A stretch of DNA of 64,000 nucleotides. Origin: Gammaproteobacteria bacterium. GTDB lineage: Bacteria; Pseudomonadota; Gammaproteobacteria; Pseudomonadales; Cellvibrionaceae. The notes under the pieces were generated by a model that saw only the letters and a program-made list of their open reading frames with translations, ran no database searches and was not told the DNA's origin. This document shows positions 11,335-48,171 of the stretch, piece by piece; the first letter of the stretch is position 1; each line of letters opens with the position of its first letter. Location of the stretch: positions 434,001 to 498,000 of the forward strand of contig SEBU01000003.1 of assembly GCA_004173475.1 (NCBI GenBank). The letters run 5' to 3'. The position numbers and the translations under genes were made by a program.

Positions 11335-12468
11335 TTATCCTTTAGTGGCTTCTTGATACGCCCAGCTCAACCAAGGCAATAGTGCTTCAAGATCAGCAGC
11401 ATCAACTGTTGCGCCAGACCAAATACGCAACCCGGCTGGAGCATCGCGGTAAGCACCTATATCGTAAGCAACACCTTCTTTATCCAACAGCTTGATCATA
11501 TTTTTTACTTGATCGCCCGTCGTTTTAAGCACGAAGCAAACTGATGTGTTTGAGCGAGTTTCCTGCGTTTGAGGTAGGAAACTGATCCAATCGTTTGCCG
11601 CAACAAATTTCTCCAATACAGCGAGGTTTGCGTTTGAGCGTGCAATTGTTTCTTTTACGCCACCAATTGAGCGCACCCAATCTAATGCATCAAGATAATC
11701 AGCAACTGCCAACATGGAAGGAGTATTAATCGTATCGCCTTTAAATAAACCTTCAGTCACTTTACCGCCACTGGTCATGCGGAATAGTTTAGGCATTGGC
11801 CAACTTGGCTTGTAAGTTTCCAAACGTTCCACCGCGCGAGGGCCAAGAATCAACATGCCGTGCGCACCTTCACCGCCGAGCACTTTTTGCCAGCTGAAAG
11901 TAATTACATCTAGCTTTTCCCAAGGCATGTCCATAGCGAACACGGCAGACGTTGCATCGCAAATAGTTAAGCCTTTACGGTCGGCAGGAATCCAGTCACC
12001 GTTAGGAACTTTTACACCTGAGGTTGTACCGTTCCAGGTAAAAATAACGTCGTTGTCGAAATTTACTTTGCTCAAATCAGGCAGCAAACCGTAGTCAGCA
12101 TTGTGCGCATTTACTGTTAGTTTCAACTCTTTGGTAGCATCGCTCAACCAGCCATTACCAAAAGACTCCCACTGCAGAATATCCACACCACGTTGGCCAA
12201 GCAGAGACCACATCGCCATTTCTACCGCACCCGTATCTGAACCGGGGACTACACCTACACGATAACCCTCCGGCAAACCCAACAATTCGGCGGTGTCCTC
12301 ACACGCACGTTGTAATGCAGCTTTACCAATAGTTGAACGATGTGAACGTCCAAGGGTAGAAACATCCAATTTATCCAGACTATAACCTGGACGCTTGCTG
12401 CAGGGACCAGATGAAAAATTGGGGTTGCGGGGCTTTGTTTGCGGTTTTTGGAAAGGCTGTACTTGCAT
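11335..12468 (-). CDS. serC: Phosphoserine aminotransferase
   Basis: This is a PLP-dependent transaminase converting 3-phosphohydroxypyruvate and glutamate to phosphoserine. The 377-residue product belongs to the shorter, divergent SerC subgroup (N-terminus [16 protein letters not shown], then STLGRSHRS), different from the E. coli-type enzyme. PLP-binding features are FTWNGTTSG, the [11 protein letters not shown] cofactor aspartate (Asp171), and the Schiff-base Lys195 in [10 protein letters not shown]. The ATG at 12468 is followed by a Gln/Pro/Lys-rich leader. It has its own terminator, and the serA gene follows. The 210 bases upstream start after the small-RNA terminator described at 12678-12706. 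Confidence 0.93.
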
Positions 12469-12677
12469 GTTAATCCTCGAAGGTAGAAAAGGTGTGCATG
12501 TGCAATTACCTACTCATTCTTATGTTGAAGCCCAAGCCACAAAAGTATGAATAAGTCTAAAAATAAGGGGCCGTGATTATGCCAGCTATACGAGAAATAA
12601 CCTAGGGTTGGAAAATAAAACCCGCCTGCACTGCGGAAATAGATGGCGATTTACTGCACCTAACCGAGCTTCGGGGC

Positions 12678-12706
12678 AAAAAAAAGCCCTCTACAATGTA
12701 GAGGGC
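12678..12706 (-). terminator. Intrinsic terminator of the candidate small RNA
   Basis: On the minus strand GCCCTCTACA-T-TGTAGAGGGC is an uninterrupted 10-bp inverted repeat (bases 12686-12706) followed directly by eight T. No protein gene ends just upstream: the GH97 stop is 410 bases away and has its own hairpin. The terminator therefore points to a separate short transcript. Confidence 0.9.
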
Positions 12707-12796
12707 AAGAGGGAGACGTCGATGCATCAACCAGACATCGACGGTGAGAGACTTTCACCATGGCTAATCTTGCACGAGGCGTATCAACCATCTGAG
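12678..12796 (-). ncRNA. Candidate small RNA, about 119 nt, between GH97 and serC
   Basis: This stretch has no credible ORF on the minus strand but has everything expected of a small RNA gene: a promoter with perfect 17-base spacing (12803-12831), three consecutive stem-loops and a strong terminator. The hairpins are GGTGA/TCACC (loop of 7), CGTCGATG/CATCGACG (8 bp, loop of 11) and the 10-bp terminator stem. GGTTGAT occurs twice, once in the unpaired 5' region and once in the 11-base loop, as expected for repeated seed regions. I see no GGA-rich loops (so not RsmY/CsrB type) and no 4.5S, 6S or tmRNA signature. Family unknown; a serC leader with an attenuator is the alternative. Confidence 0.65.
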
Positions 12797-12802
12797 GCTC
12801 TC

Positions 12803-12831
12803 ACTTTATCCACAAATGACAGCGCTGTCAA
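12803..12831 (-). promoter_or_regulatory. Promoter with LacI-type palindromic operator
   Basis: On the minus strand TTGACA (12831-12826) and TAAAGT (12808-12803) are separated by exactly 17 bases, predicting a start near 12796. Overlapping the -35 and spacer is the perfect 14-bp palindrome TGACAGCGCTGTCA (12817-12830), whose central CG resembles operators of LacI-family sugar regulators. The geometry suggests repression of the downstream small RNA. Which regulator binds is not visible; no LacI-family gene is in the window. Confidence 0.6.
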
Positions 12832-13115: not shown

Positions 13116-15035
13116 TTATTTAAAAACGGCTACGAATCCGCCGCGAGATTTCATCGCCAAAGTCATGTCTTTACCGCTCGCTATTTCAGCTTGGGTAAAT
13201 TCGCGTTCCGAGTTACCGTCCGTAATTAAAAAACCTTTCTTATCGCCCAGGAAACTCAAATCCAGCGTTACATTTTTTTCTGTTGCTTCAGCATTAATAC
13301 CAGCCACGTACCAGCTGTCACCAGCTTTGCGGGCGAGAATCAGGTATTTGCCGGGAACACCATCAATAAATTTCATGTCATCCCAAGTGCGCGGTAATTC
13401 TTGCAAGAAAGTTTTAACGTATTCGGGCGCTGTGGCCATGCCTTCCGGAATTTCGGCAAAATGCTGGATGCCGGAAATAAATAAAACCGATTCCGCAATT
13501 TCAAAACCATTACGCGTCGTACGTTTAATATTAGGAATGTCACCAAACACCATGGGAGTAAAATCCATGGGATCAAACAAATTACGAGCGAATGGCGACA
13601 TAGCGGCGTGAGTTGCGACCGCGTCCTGATCGGCTTGCGAAAAGGTCGTGAACTCAAAACCTTTTATGGCCTCCATGGTCATTAAGTTGGGGTATGTGCG
13701 TTGCCAACCGCGCGGCAAAGTCGCACCATGAAAATTGATGAGCAATCCGTGTGCGGCCGCGTCTTTCAAAATATCAATGTAATAGGCAATCATTGATCTG
13801 CCGTCACCACCGAAGAAATCAATCTTCAATCCTTTAACACCCATTTCACGCAAACGCGAAAACTCTGCAACACGTTGTTCGTGGGTCAATAACTGGCTTC
13901 TGGGAGTAAACGGTGCGGTATTCCAATCACCCGCCGAGTTGTACCACAAAATAATTCCGATATTTTTTGTAGCTGCGTAATCAACTAATTCTTTCATTTT
14001 TTCGTAACCGATTTTTTTATCCCAATCGGCGTCTACCAAGGTGTAGTCCCAATGCATATCCACTGCATAATCTACAAACTTTTTCTGAACGTCGAATATC
14101 GTGTAATCGTCTTTTAAAATTACCCAGCTCCAGGAAGCATGACCAGGTTGAATTAATTTTTTATCAAATGAAATTGCTTTATCGGCGAGATCAGTACCAA
14201 GGGTAGATTCCATAACTGTCGATAAATTACCTATTGCAATAACCCGCCACGGGGAAACCAAATCAGATGTGGTTTCAGCTAACAAATTTCCACCGGTAAA
14301 CACTTCTGCGGCCATAGGCGTACCAATTTTGTACTCACCTTTCTCAGACTGTTGTTGCAATCGTGAAGCATGAAAGCTCCCATCTAAATTAACTTCAGTG
14401 AGCAACATCCAAGTGTCATTAGTCTTGAATAAAGCGGGAAATACCCAGCCTGCAGGTGATGGGGACGCTGTGCCTGCCGCAATATCCATCAGATAATGTT
14501 CCTCGTACGATGGATTAGTATTGCTCCAGCCAGTTTGTGCGACAGCCATGGGTTGCATCCAGGCTTTGGTGGATTCAGGGAATGCAAAACCAGTCGTTTC
14601 ATTTTTAAACGTGATCAATTGTTTTTTTGGATTCGCGAACTGATAACGAAACGCGACACCGTCGTTTGATGCACGAAACACCACATCCAATTGCTGACCG
14701 GCTGAATTTTTTAATGTATAAGTTTGTTCATTTGCCTGATACGTGATTTTGTGTTTTTTACCAACCATCATCTCGTAACTATCACTGATGGTTTTAACAG
14801 CGGAGGTATTTTTTATACTCACCGACTTCGTAAAATCAGCATCGCTTAATTCAATTCCTAGCGTAGATTCTTTTAAAACCGCTTTACCGGCCCTCGTAAT
14901 ACTATATTGCACAACTCCATTATTATTGCTGAGGTGAACTTGTAAATGTTTGTCCGGGCTTGCGAGATCTTGCGGTGTATTCTTCGCGCAAGACACGAAC
15001 AATAAACAGATAAGGCCAATGTAAATTTTATTCAT
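13116..15035 (-). CDS. GH97-family glycoside hydrolase lipoprotein
   Basis: This 639-residue product carries a lipoprotein signal (LLFVSC, Cys16), an N-terminal beta-super-sandwich and a TIM barrel typical of GH97. The barrel shows YTLVDADWDKKIGY (331-344), IILWYNSAGDW (361-371), GLKIDFFGGDGR (402-413) and TMEAIKGFEF (453-462). In this family Asp at the KIDF position (Asp406 here) is the nucleophile of the retaining branch (alpha-galactosidase-like), while SusB-like inverting enzymes lack it, so I infer a retaining enzyme. It is likely attached to the inner or outer membrane facing the periplasm. It releases alpha-linked galactose or glucose from oligosaccharides. No transporter or regulator is adjacent. 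Confidence 0.92.
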   Translation of the reverse strand: MNKIYIGLICLLFVSCAKNTPQDLASPDKHLQVHLSNNNGVVQYSITRAGKAVLKESTLGIELSDADFTKSVSIKNTSAVKTISDSYEMMVGKKHKITYQANEQTYTLKNSAGQQLDVVFRASNDGVAFRYQFANPKKQLITFKNETTGFAFPESTKAWMQPMAVAQTGWSNTNPSYEEHYLMDIAAGTASPSPAGWVFPALFKTNDTWMLLTEVNLDGSFHASRLQQQSEKGEYKIGTPMAAEVFTGGNLLAETTSDLVSPWRVIAIGNLSTVMESTLGTDLADKAISFDKKLIQPGHASWSWVILKDDYTIFDVQKKFVDYAVDMHWDYTLVDADWDKKIGYEKMKELVDYAATKNIGIILWYNSAGDWNTAPFTPRSQLLTHEQRVAEFSRLREMGVKGLKIDFFGGDGRSMIAYYIDILKDAAAHGLLINFHGATLPRGWQRTYPNLMTMEAIKGFEFTTFSQADQDAVATHAAMSPFARNLFDPMDFTPMVFGDIPNIKRTTRNGFEIAESVLFISGIQHFAEIPEGMATAPEYVKTFLQELPRTWDDMKFIDGVPGKYLILARKAGDSWYVAGINAEATEKNVTLDLSFLGDKKGFLITDGNSEREFTQAEIASGKDMTLAMKSRGGFVAVFK

Positions 15036-36974: not shown

Positions 36975-37087
36975 AAATTTCCTCAATCTAAAAAAGATGA
37001 GGGAGGGAAAGCGGAATAATGCGCGAGGCTGTGAAGTCCTCAAAACAGAATTTCCACCGATGTTGCCCTCCGCGACATCGTGAATAT

Positions 37088-37257
37088 AAGTGTTGAGGCT
37101 GGTATCGGACTTATGCTCTGTATTTCAAGAATCATTTACCGTTGCGGGGGCAGTGTTGGCTTTACAAGGTTATATTGTTCACCAAACTTCCCATTTAATT
37201 TGACCCTTGCCTTGTTGAATCTACTACCGAAACAACAATTGGCACGTCAAACACCTC
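37088..37257 (-). promoter_or_regulatory. Cobalamin riboswitch upstream of btuB
   Basis: On the minus strand the leader shows the conserved core in order: GACGTGCC, AATGGGAAGTTTGGTGAA, CACTGCCCCCGCAACGGTAA, and a B12-box AAGTCCGATACCAGCC, closed by a P1 helix between GGTGTTTGA and TCAACAC. It lies 114 bases before the btuB ATG. Adenosylcobalamin binding is expected to reduce btuB (and possibly cobO) expression, most likely by sequestering the RBS, because I see no obvious terminator between riboswitch and ATG. Confidence 0.93.
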
Positions 37258-45739: not shown

Positions 45740-45768
45740 AAAAAAAAGCCCGCTGCAAATCAGCGGGC
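45740..45768 (-). terminator. Lipase gene terminator
   Basis: On the minus strand GCCCGCTG-ATTTG-CAGCGGGC is followed by eight T, 28 bases after the lipase stop. It is a strong intrinsic terminator. Confidence 0.95.
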
Positions 45769-45795
45769 TATAAATTTCATGAAAACGAAATGGTA

Positions 45796-48171
45796 TTAGG
45801 GCTGCTCAATATTCGCGGGAGCCTGGCTCCCCACAGCAACCTTTCCGCTACCCAACACGAAACTAACAATTTCGGCCTGCATTTCAGGCGTTATTTGCGG
45901 TGCAGCTGTCGATGGTTTCAATAAAGAAGCGTGATCACCTGCATTTAATTTCACCAACCCAGATTTCACGGTGTTCGACTCCGAGTCGAAGCCTAACTGG
46001 GTTTCACCCAAACCAAGTTGAGTTGCGCCTAGCAGCCGTGCAAACGCCTGGGTCCCAGTCAATGGTGCTACCTCTGAACTGTTTGGAATTACCGCATCGT
46101 TCTTAACTTGTTGCAGTAACACCGGGATTTTCAGTGTCGGGAGCAATTGGGCGAAGTTCACTGGATCGCCTGAATCCATTGCAGTCTGCGCAGCGTACAA
46201 GAACTTTTCGTAATTGCTCGTACCTATATTAACCCCGGCCTTTGCCAAGCCGGCATTTATCACCGGAGCAAAGGTTGCTGAGTTCACCAAAATTTGCGCT
46301 ACCTGCGTGCCCGCTACCGACGCGACCAAGCTGCGTACCGGGTTAAGATTGGACGTTAAGTTGATCTTGGCATCATTGGCAATAGCGATCTGGTTTACAG
46401 TGGTAAACACTGAGCCAATAATTCCTCCCAACGAGTGTCCCACCACATTTACATTGCCGAGGTTTAGCTTGGCACCTTGCGCCTGAACGAAGTCGGCATC
46501 CAAACCTTTTAAGCTTGCATTGAGATTTAGCAAATCCATTACCGCCTGACGATTGTTATCGCGGGTATTTAGCAGATAACCAAGGTTCGTAAACTGAGCT
46601 CCCGAACCATCGCTTGCGGTGGGTGTAGAAAAATTCATAGGTGCTGGTGCACCGCCAGGGCCTGCGACGTTAAAGTGACGCTCATGAGGTGCGTCTGTTC
46701 CGTAGAGTGTGGCAAAAGGAATAAGTTGACCTTTTTCTACATTAAGCACACCTACGAAAGGATTAGTAGCCGCGACACCATGCAGAGGCAAATCTATAGC
46801 GACGGTGGCCACACAACGGCCTGCCAAGGTATGCGCAAGCGCCAAGCCAGAGGTACGGTCACTGGTAATACCGTGAATGTAGATAACAACCGGATAGCCG
46901 TTAACACCGAAAATCTGACCGCAAGTTAATGAGCCAGACAAACCGGAAACCAAACCACTCTCCGGCAAAGTTACCTGTAAAGGCACCGTCTCATCGCTTG
47001 TTTTGGCCGCGAAAGGATAGCGGTAGGTGACGTTATAAGAAGTCGCATCGACGTCCTTGGGAACCGCAACGCCAAGCTGTGAAGCCAAGGTTAAATCGGG
47101 TGCCCAATTTTTTGTCAGATATGCGCCAAAGGGCAAACTGCCCGGGGCGGTTAAGTAATAGGGGAGCTTGATAAAGCCAGTATAGAGTTTACCGACGTTA
47201 CCAGCTAAAGCGCCATTGCTTAGCACCCCCATATCCACACCTGTAGCAGCAGATATTTTTAAGGAACGCTGCTTAGGCGTTGAAAGCAAACCGCCCATAT
47301 CAAGCGCCGTAACGTTCCCTACCGCTGTCGCCGACGCTACACCAGCCGTAATTTGCGACGCGGCCAACGCAGCCCGGGGTGCTGCCATAGCAATCAAAGG
47401 CGCTTGCGGATCTGTGGTGGTGAATGTGTAGGTCAGTACCAATTTATCGGTAGCTGCGGCTGTGGTAAGCCCGGTCACTTTAGAAAGGAATCCACTGGCC
47501 AGGGTTTCCCAACCCACTACGGCATTGCGCACCGGCAGCAAACTTTCCAATATTGGATAGCTAGTGTCGTGCAGCGCATTGTAAGTCCAGGAGCGGGTTA
47601 ATGCTTTACCAGAAGAATCTTTAATATCGTTGGTGAACACGACCAAATATTTGGCTTTGGATGTCAAAGGTAAGGTCGGGCGGATTCTAATGGCGTTATT
47701 TGTACCGCCATCCAGGGAAACAACTTTTGTATCAAAGGTCGCAGCTCCTTTAATGCCGATAATATTGGCTGGGTTGAGAGCGTCTTTTCCGCCCGTGTCC
47801 AACTCTAAAAGAATCACGCTTTTCATCGGCACCACAGTCGCCGCATCCACACTGCCTTCAATCATGACATCAAAAAATGCAGAGGTTGAAAATCCATCCA
47901 GCCCATTAAGGGTCGCGCGAACCGTGTCTGAGGGTGATCCAACATCCGCAGTACCGTCGGTGGTGCCGGCTTTGGCAAAAATTAAATCGGTATTGAAAGG
48001 AATATCTGAAATGACCGGATCAAAACGGGGATGGGTTCCAGCCACAAATGCTTCTGGCTCGCTAAGCGGAGGTTGGGTTTGCTTGTCGTTCCCTCCGCCA
48101 CATGCCGTGAGCAATGTTGAAAAAATGAGAGCTAAAGTTGTGCAGGGGAGAAATTTGCTTTTATTTTTCAT
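45796..48171 (-). CDS. Pla-1/cef-type lipase lipoprotein
   Basis: This 791-residue protein is read from the ATG at 48171 (AGGA about nine bases upstream). Lipobox LLTACGG gives Cys24, so it is a lipoprotein, likely surface-exposed. The long N-terminal half is beta-rich with Ig-like repeats; the alpha/beta-hydrolase region has YIHGITSDR (431-439), LPLHGVA, and the nucleophile VVGHSLGGIIG with Ser580. Length and layout match the Pla-1/cef extracellular lipase group (VolA-like), which releases fatty acids from phospholipids. It fits with a fatty-acid activating fadD elsewhere in the window. Confidence 0.9.
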   Translation of the reverse strand: MKNKSKFLPCTTLALIFSTLLTACGGGNDKQTQPPLSEPEAFVAGTHPRFDPVISDIPFNTDLIFAKAGTTDGTADVGSPSDTVRATLNGLDGFSTSAFFDVMIEGSVDAATVVPMKSVILLELDTGGKDALNPANIIGIKGAATFDTKVVSLDGGTNNAIRIRPTLPLTSKAKYLVVFTNDIKDSSGKALTRSWTYNALHDTSYPILESLLPVRNAVVGWETLASGFLSKVTGLTTAAATDKLVLTYTFTTTDPQAPLIAMAAPRAALAASQITAGVASATAVGNVTALDMGGLLSTPKQRSLKISAATGVDMGVLSNGALAGNVGKLYTGFIKLPYYLTAPGSLPFGAYLTKNWAPDLTLASQLGVAVPKDVDATSYNVTYRYPFAAKTSDETVPLQVTLPESGLVSGLSGSLTCGQIFGVNGYPVVIYIHGITSDRTSGLALAHTLAGRCVATVAIDLPLHGVAATNPFVGVLNVEKGQLIPFATLYGTDAPHERHFNVAGPGGAPAPMNFSTPTASDGSGAQFTNLGYLLNTRDNNRQAVMDLLNLNASLKGLDADFVQAQGAKLNLGNVNVVGHSLGGIIGSVFTTVNQIAIANDAKINLTSNLNPVRSLVASVAGTQVAQILVNSATFAPVINAGLAKAGVNIGTSNYEKFLYAAQTAMDSGDPVNFAQLLPTLKIPVLLQQVKNDAVIPNSSEVAPLTGTQAFARLLGATQLGLGETQLGFDSESNTVKSGLVKLNAGDHASLLKPSTAAPQITPEMQAEIVSFVLGSGKVAVGSQAPANIEQP

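What the first reader, a model, noticed from the sequence alone, without database searches (positions are those of the whole stretch)
12678..12831. Unannotated small RNA gene with its own operator
Seen: TTGACA-N17-TAAAGT, a perfect TGACAGCGCTGTCA palindrome overlapping the -35/spacer, three successive stem-loops, and a 10-bp terminator stem with eight T, all in the right order over about 150 bases with no ORF on that strand. GGTTGAT occurs twice, both times predicted single-stranded (5' end and an 11-base loop). Known: LacI-family operators for sugar genes have a central CG like this one. Inference: a sugar-responsive repressor controls a base-pairing RNA, perhaps tied to the carbohydrate genes next to it. 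A serC attenuator is the main alternative.
Basis: partly seen in the sequence, partly recalled or inferred. Interest (0 to 1): 0.72.

Follow-up and report, generated by a model that had tools for sequence, protein, structure and literature searches.

The report
Small RNA wired to glucoside-sensing repressor
In plant-cell-wall-eating Cellvibrio bacteria a small RNA gene, matching no catalogued RNA family, sits under the same DNA switch that controls glucokinase and beta-glucosidase genes, so the cell probably makes this RNA when glucose-type sugars are available, but what the RNA then acts on is still unknown.

Summary
The minus strand of 12831-12678 carries a free-standing small-RNA gene: TTGACA-17-TAAAGT promoter, perfect TGACAGCGCTGTCA operator over the -35, ~119-nt RNA, strong terminator. 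It is present in 20 of 21 genus genomes and in five genomes of three related genera (Marinimicrobium type); a 42-nt core (TCTCTCACC, a hairpin with loop TCTGGTTGATG, GTCTCCCT) has one variable position in 21 genus copies, while the terminator and one hairpin pair show compensatory changes. The exact operator precedes 25 of 26 copies with fixed promoter spacing. Its other 47 exact sites in the 21 genus genomes lie at GH3 beta-glucosidase/glucokinase genes (21 sites, one per genome; a LacI-family gene is in the same stretch in 18), TonB-receptor-like genes (17), cellulase/xylanase-type genes (4), lacI itself (1) or unlabelled genes (4). In Marinimicrobium the order is lacI-glk-operator-sRNA-serC. 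A serC attenuator is unlikely: serC has its own conserved promoter element beyond the terminator, and one Cellvibrio lacks the sRNA but keeps serC and that element. No Rfam family reaches its cut-off. Marinimicrobium-type genomes hold a paralogue with the same core and a different promoter. Base-pairing is inferred; no convincing target was found.

The parts
12817..12830 (.). operator TGACAGCGCTGTCA (perfect palindrome, cre-like)
   Evidence: exact copy upstream of 25 of 26 sRNA copies; 67 exact sites in 21 genus genomes, reversed-pattern control 0 in 21
12826..12831 (-). -35 hexamer TTGACA, overlapping the operator
   Evidence: same arrangement in relatives
12803..12808 (-). -10 hexamer TAAAGT, 17-nt spacer
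   Evidence: best -10-like hexamer (sought at spacings 16-19) lies at 17 nt in 24 of 25 copies with exact operator, 18 in one
12678..12797 (-). small RNA, about 119-120 nt; the 5' end is inferred from the promoter
   Evidence: start not measured
12710..12751 (-). 42-nt conserved core TCTCTCACC...GTCTCCCT
   Evidence: one variable column in 21 genus copies; same layout in Marinimicrobium-type genomes
12717..12743 (-). core hairpin, 8 bp, 11-nt loop TCTGGTTGATG (12735-12725)
   Evidence: never varies within the genus; G-C to C-G at one pair in 7 of 16 aligned sequences (4 of the 7 are paralogues) and G-C to A-U once at another
12707..12716 (-). single-stranded pyrimidine-rich linker TCTCCCTCTT, Shine-Dalgarno-complementary (inferred pairing segment)
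12678..12706 (-). intrinsic terminator with 8 T
   Evidence: 6 of 9 pairs with two-sided changes among 19 distinct genus copies
12576..12604 (-). conserved serC promoter-like element TAGGTTATT-N9-GCTGGCATAAT, beyond the sRNA terminator
   Evidence: 21 of 21 genus copies; kept in the genus genome that lacks the sRNA
11335..12468 (-). serC, downstream gene, not part of the sRNA gene
   Evidence: name recalled from the sequence; no family search run on it
13116..15035 (-). GH97 glycoside hydrolase, upstream neighbour, not conserved as neighbour
   Evidence: Pfam GH97

Best explanation
It is a trans-acting small regulatory RNA gene of the beta-glucoside/glucose regulon. A CcpA/GalR-like LacI-family repressor, encoded in most genus genomes next to glucokinase, sits on TGACAGCGCTGTCA over the -35 box and blocks transcription; when glucose or a beta-glucoside is available the repressor leaves and the RNA is made together with glucokinase, GH3 beta-glucosidase and TonB-dependent receptors. 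The RNA then most likely (Hfq-assisted) pairs with mRNAs through its invariant pyrimidine-rich segments TCTCTCACC and GTCTCCCT and the loop TCTGGTTGATG, repressing translation of genes not needed while glucosides are used. Shown by sequence comparison: gene anatomy, conservation, shared operator, independence from serC. Inferred: which protein binds, its effector, Hfq dependence, pairing and target choice.
For: Anatomy. Conservation: 20 of 21 genus genomes, five genomes of three further genera, core pattern in 25 of 144 family genomes with reversed control 0 in 144. Covariation: terminator 6 of 9 pairs two-sided, 0 of 500 shuffles reach the covariation score; one compensated pair in the core hairpin. 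Operator: exact upstream of 25 of 26 copies with fixed -10 spacing. Regulon: of the 47 exact non-sRNA sites in 21 genus genomes, 21 (one per genome) lie within 700 bp upstream of GH3 beta-glucosidase and/or glucokinase, 17 upstream of TonB-receptor-like genes, 4 of cellulase/xylanase-type genes, 1 of lacI, 4 unlabelled; a LacI-family gene is in the same fetched stretch in 18 of 21; the operator also precedes lacI in L240 and L244 of other genera. Order lacI-glk-operator-sRNA-serC in L242 and L244, with one extra gene before serC in L243. Regulator: Pfam LacI + Peripla_BP_3, best solved relative CcpA, E 2e-51; a gel-shift study designed exactly TGACAGCGCTGTCA as a cre site and reports CcpA binding (PMC10992428, passages). 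Hfq gene present.
Against: No transcript data. No target: duplex energies against leaders of 8 gene groups do not beat shuffled RNA segments (all |z| < 2); AGAGGGAGAC hits fall at no recurrent gene; pairing with the lacI leader exists only in one subclade; a recurrent weak pairing with the bacterioferritin-like leader (6 loci high) falls on what looks like that gene's own promoter and is not beyond shuffles (z -1.28, 28 of 300). In G006 and G016 no lacI gene is in the fetched glk stretch, and one sRNA copy (L007) has only a degenerate operator. The 5' third is poorly conserved. The number of pair types does not exceed shuffles (430 and 172 of 500 reach it).
Confidence: 0.8

Rival explanations
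1. It is a leader/attenuator of serC: the transcript runs into serC and the terminator controls read-through.
For: serC is the next gene, same strand, in 21 of 21 genus copies and 4 of 5 others.
Against: serC has its own conserved promoter-like element beyond the terminator in 21 of 21 genus copies (in the five other copies that long element is absent, though GGCATAAT is found in 4); G005 keeps serC and that element but has no sRNA; in L243 (M. alkaliphilum contig) another reading frame lies between; the operator belongs to glucoside genes, not serine synthesis; the terminator is kept by compensatory changes.
Confidence: 0.05
2. A protein-binding (titrating) RNA rather than a base-pairing one, for example a sponge for an RNA-binding protein.
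For: The hairpin stem is as invariant as the loop in Cellvibrio, more than pairing alone needs (inference); no target found.
Against: No GGA and no AANAANAA motif in the RNA (motifs of CsrA/RsmA and CrcZ type recalled); only one conserved hairpin; in other genera the stem changes with compensation while the loop centre TGGTTGAT stays.
Confidence: 0.12
3. A short mRNA for a small protein (frame ...VSHRRCLVDASTSPS...).
For: That frame is open in many copies.
Confidence: 0.03

Closest known systems
RsaI of Staphylococcus aureus (sRNA repressed by CcpA)
   Same: small RNA repressed by a LacI/GalR-family carbon regulator; pairs with Shine-Dalgarno regions of sugar-related mRNAs (PMC9266662, passages)
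   Different: RsaI is repressed by CcpA when glucose is abundant and derepressed in starvation; here repression is expected to be lifted by glucose or a glucoside; no Rfam match links them; targets here unknown
Rfam suhB/mmgR (RF00519), SorX (RF02784), Betaproteobacteria toxic sRNA (RF02278)
   Same: CUCCCU/CUCC-type single-stranded stretch before a terminator; sub-threshold scores 23.9, 21.3 and 23.0 bits, E 0.004-0.009
   Different: all far below gathering scores (41, 46.6, 50); SorX's printed consensus has GGGUCAUG, not UGGUUGAU, in the loop; the other two printed alignments hide that part
GluR/BglR glucose and beta-glucoside regulons
   Same: LacI-family regulators of glk, beta-glucosidases, outer-membrane receptors, transporters (PMC4052901 and PMC2996990, passages)
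   Different: the main text of PMC4052901 has 0 occurrences of 'small RNA'; orthology to the Cellvibrio repressor not tested
SgrS / Spot 42 sugar-responsive sRNAs (recalled)
   Same: role: RNA arm of sugar control
   Different: other regulators (SgrR, CRP; recalled); no Rfam hit here

Membership tests
Independent intergenic sRNA gene | own promoter and own intrinsic terminator, conserved | tested here: met
Independent intergenic sRNA gene | no conserved open reading frame | tested here: met
   no ATG for the best frame in 6 of 21 genus copies
Independent intergenic sRNA gene | discrete transcript of the predicted size | not testable with these tools
   no expression data held
Hfq-dependent trans-acting sRNA | Hfq encoded in the genome; terminator with long U tail | tested here: met
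   (Hfq, 101 bits); 8 T
Hfq-dependent trans-acting sRNA | conserved complementary sites in target mRNAs | tested here: inconclusive
   none found in the limited sets searched
LacI-family-controlled gene | palindromic operator with central CG over the promoter, shared with genes beside a LacI-family gene | tested here: met
LacI-family-controlled gene | the protein binds the operator; effector identity | not testable with these tools
   only the general precedent of CcpA binding probes with this 14-mer
Rfam suhB/mmgR, SorX, Betaproteobacteria toxic sRNA | score at or above the curated gathering score | tested here: not met
serC attenuator | serC depends on the promoter upstream of the terminator | tested here: not met
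   by sequence only: serC promoter element 21 of 21; sRNA absent with serC kept in G005

The most novel reading that the evidence does not exclude
A lineage-specific, modular RNA arm of carbon control: one base-pairing core (TCTCTCAC - loop TGGTTGAT - GTCTCCCT) has been copied and placed under different sugar regulators, a LacI-type glucoside repressor in Cellvibrio and Marinimicrobium and, in Marinimicrobium, a second copy beside a GntR/FCD regulator gene with a GTATTATAATAC-type palindrome at its promoter, so that different sugars trigger the same post-transcriptional programme.
Probability: 0.35. Interest if true: 0.72.

Novelty: new member of a known kind. Interest (0 to 1): 0.56.

Why it matters
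Cellvibrio is a model for lignocellulose breakdown, and a 2024 review of hemicellulase gene regulation whose main text names Cellvibrio japonicus 19 times has no occurrence of 'small RNA' or 'sRNA' (PMC10766802, term counts and passages). A genus-conserved RNA under the glucoside repressor would be an unseen layer deciding how the degradative programme is dosed, and it is directly testable in a soil bacterium that can be handled genetically (recalled).

Tried and rejected
Target search: (1) duplex energies of the three segments against leaders of 323 ORFs in the window and 44 fetched loci. The lacI leader carries a perfect ATCAACCAGA in G013 and TCAACCAGA in G009 and G012, but not in the own genome or most others. 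A bacterioferritin-like leader recurs among the best for the loop segment, but over 12 leaders it is not beyond shuffled segments (z -1.28, 28 of 300), and the matching CCAGACT lies 16-18 nt after a TTGACA, so probably in that gene's promoter (promoter reading by eye). (2) Eight gene groups against 150 shuffles of the segments: largest |z| 1.84. (3) CATCAACCAG is commoner than its reversed control in all 5 genomes searched, most of all in G018 (82 against 5); I take this for codon use (Ile-Asn-Gln) and did not follow it; AGAGGGAGAC gave 20 hits in 5 genomes, 15 of them outside the sRNA and at no recurrent gene start.

Distribution: model R1 gave 42 of 144 family genomes at E <= 0.01, but only 25 of 144 carry the core pattern; 9 weak-hit loci that I checked lack the core, and the second hit in the own genome, window 45740-45798, is a terminator behind a gene. 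R2 outside the family gave weak hits only (28.4-37.5 bits) in 6 of 390 order genomes at E <= 1e-4 and 2 of 369 class genomes at E <= 1e-6; all 8 lack the core. The named scan found 16 contigs, named Cellvibrio, Marinimicrobium, Cellvibrionaceae or only Gammaproteobacteria; large complete genomes that carry the RNA (for example G006, G016, G018) are not in that result, so it is not exhaustive.

Mistakes: the promoter pattern used a spacer at least one base too long and so missed most sRNA promoters; only its hits at other genes are used. The output was cut around L113; one search relabelled all 47 sites. Labels come from tblastn against the own genome's proteins and one receptor (L096); those to GH11/GH6/GH10 references may rest on shared cellulose-binding domains, and two receptor matches are only 28-30% identical.

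Full report
What is there. On the minus strand, TTGACA (12831-12826), a 17-nt spacer and TAAAGT (12808-12803) precede about 119 nt that end in a 9-10 bp hairpin and eight T (12706-12678). The palindrome TGACAGCGCTGTCA at 12817-12830 covers five bases of the -35 box and half of the spacer, and is the only such site in the window even with two mismatches. The predicted RNA folds far better than its shuffles (z -4.25). Promoter-like and terminator-like matches by themselves are at chance level in this region.

Conservation. The DNA search found it in 20 of 21 genus genomes (own plus 19 of 20; the 21st matching genome among 37, G030, matches only the terminator part). In the 21 genus copies (G017 has two) the 42-nt core TCTCTCACCGTCGATGTCTGGTTGATGCATCGACGTCTCCCT has a single variable column, whereas the 5' part and the terminator drift. 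The terminator drifts with compensation: 6 of 9 pairs show two-sided changes, 99.4% of cells are paired and none of 500 shuffles reaches the covariation score; the number of pair types alone is not above shuffles. The core hairpin never varies within the genus; with other genera added, one G-C pair is C-G in 7 of 16 aligned sequences (three sRNA copies and four paralogues) and another is A-U once.

Range. The core pattern occurs in 25 of 144 family genomes (29 places), with the reversed control at 0. A named scan returns only Cellvibrio, Marinimicrobium, Cellvibrionaceae and Gammaproteobacteria records (16 contigs). Outside the family, model R2 gives only weak hits in 390 order and 369 class genomes, none with the core. 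No Rfam family reaches its gathering score here; the best sub-threshold ones share the CUCC(CU)-plus-terminator layout.

Operator and regulon. An exact TTGACAGCGCTGTCA lies 66-237 nt upstream of the core in 25 of 26 copies from Cellvibrio and the Marinimicrobium-type genomes, with a -10-like hexamer 17 nt from the -35 in 24 and 18 nt in one; the exception, L007, shows a degenerate TTGACAGGGTTGTCG followed by TAAAGT. The exact 14-mer occurs 2-6 times per genome in 21 of 21 genus genomes (67 sites) and its reversed control never. Twenty of the 67 are the sRNA operators. I fetched the stretches around the other 47 and labelled the genes whose 5' ends lie within 700 bp downstream of each site: GH3 beta-glucosidase and/or glucokinase at 21 sites, one in each of the 21 genomes; TonB-receptor-like genes at 17; cellulase/xylanase-type genes at 4; lacI at 1; nothing recognised at 4 (L099, L114, L116, L130) (Pfam for the repressor, glucokinase, GH3 and one receptor). 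A LacI-family gene is in the same stretch in 18 of 21 genomes; it is missing from the stretches of G006 and G016 and from the short contig of G017. The operator lies upstream of lacI in L112 and, in other genera, in L240 and L244. In other genera the same 14-mer lies between glk and GH3 (L234-L236) or between an MFS transporter and a glucose-6-phosphate dehydrogenase operon (L237-L239, Pfam for L237). The repressor's nearest solved relatives are CcpA proteins, and exactly this 14-mer, designed as a cre site, was reported to bind CcpA in gel shifts (PMC10992428, passages). That makes a LacI-type repressor responding to glucose or beta-glucosides the best candidate; the effector is inferred from the gene content.

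Why it sits by serC. In Marinimicrobium-type genomes the order is lacI - glk (divergent) - operator - sRNA - serC - serA (L242, L244; L243 has one extra reading frame before serC). The simplest history is that the RNA arose between glk and serC and that glk and lacI moved away in Cellvibrio while the RNA kept its operator and its place (inference). It is not an obligatory serC attenuator: a promoter-like element TAGGTTATT-N9-GCTGGCATAAT lies beyond the terminator in 21 of 21 genus copies, and G005 has serC and that element without the RNA.

A paralogue. G073, G074, G075 and G076 each hold a second copy of the core without the LacI operator nearby; upstream lies TTGTA(T/C)TATAATA, and in the first three a gene of one family follows, GntR/FCD by Pfam in the one tested (L245). 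The same RNA core thus appears under two kinds of promoter. Whether the GntR protein controls it is untested.

Mechanism. With Hfq present and an RNA made of a hairpin with an invariant loop between two invariant pyrimidine-rich segments, pairing with ribosome-binding sites is the most likely mode; the closest functional analogue is RsaI, repressed by CcpA and acting on Shine-Dalgarno sequences (PMC9266662, passages), with the opposite sugar logic. My target tests were negative or limited to one subclade, so the regulatory outcome is inference.

Literature. Searches for Cellvibrio + small RNA (16 papers), Cellvibrio japonicus + LacI (12), Cellvibrio + sRNA (6), Marinimicrobium + small RNA (1) and the operator letters (1) showed nothing on this RNA in the listings; two further searches for LacI-controlled sRNAs gave 0 and 1 papers. 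The library holds open-licence papers only. Of the papers cited I saw passages and term counts, none in full.

Noticed in passing
window 37080-37246 (minus): Cobalamin riboswitch, 49.9 bits, the only Rfam gathering-level hit of the window.
   Followed up: no
L134, L135, L136, L145, L245 (5262), L137/L246 (5647): Paralogous sRNA with the same core and a TTGTA(T/C)TATAATA palindrome-like promoter element; a gene of one family follows in L134-L136 (GntR/FCD by Pfam in L245); L245 also has a GH97 gene upstream, as the window has next to the first sRNA.
   Followed up: partly
L042:2625-4542 (own genome): A GH6-type cellulase gene (label by eye) is split into two overlapping reading frames, whereas G005 has one 1056-aa frame matching it (L131:5088-8258); frameshift or assembly error.
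   Followed up: no
L042:4890 and 5035: Two one-mismatch operators 145 bp apart between the cellulase-type genes and a GH10-type xylanase gene in the own genome.
   Followed up: partly
L237-L239: In genus g40 two exact operators lie between an MFS transporter and a glucose-6-phosphate dehydrogenase operon, so the same operator may run central glucose catabolism there.
   Followed up: partly
L099:4460: In G018 an exact operator lies 280 bp from the start of a gene that looks like a secreted lytic polysaccharide monooxygenase (label from memory of the sequence).
   Followed up: no
L003 and L004, upstream of the sRNA: A partial second operator copy lies directly before the operator (TGACAGCGCTGT followed by TTGACAGCGCTGTCA).
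   Followed up: no
G017: L004 and L022: Two sRNA copies of different clade type in one genome listed with 6% contamination, one on a 7.4-kb contig: probably a contaminant contig.
   Followed up: no
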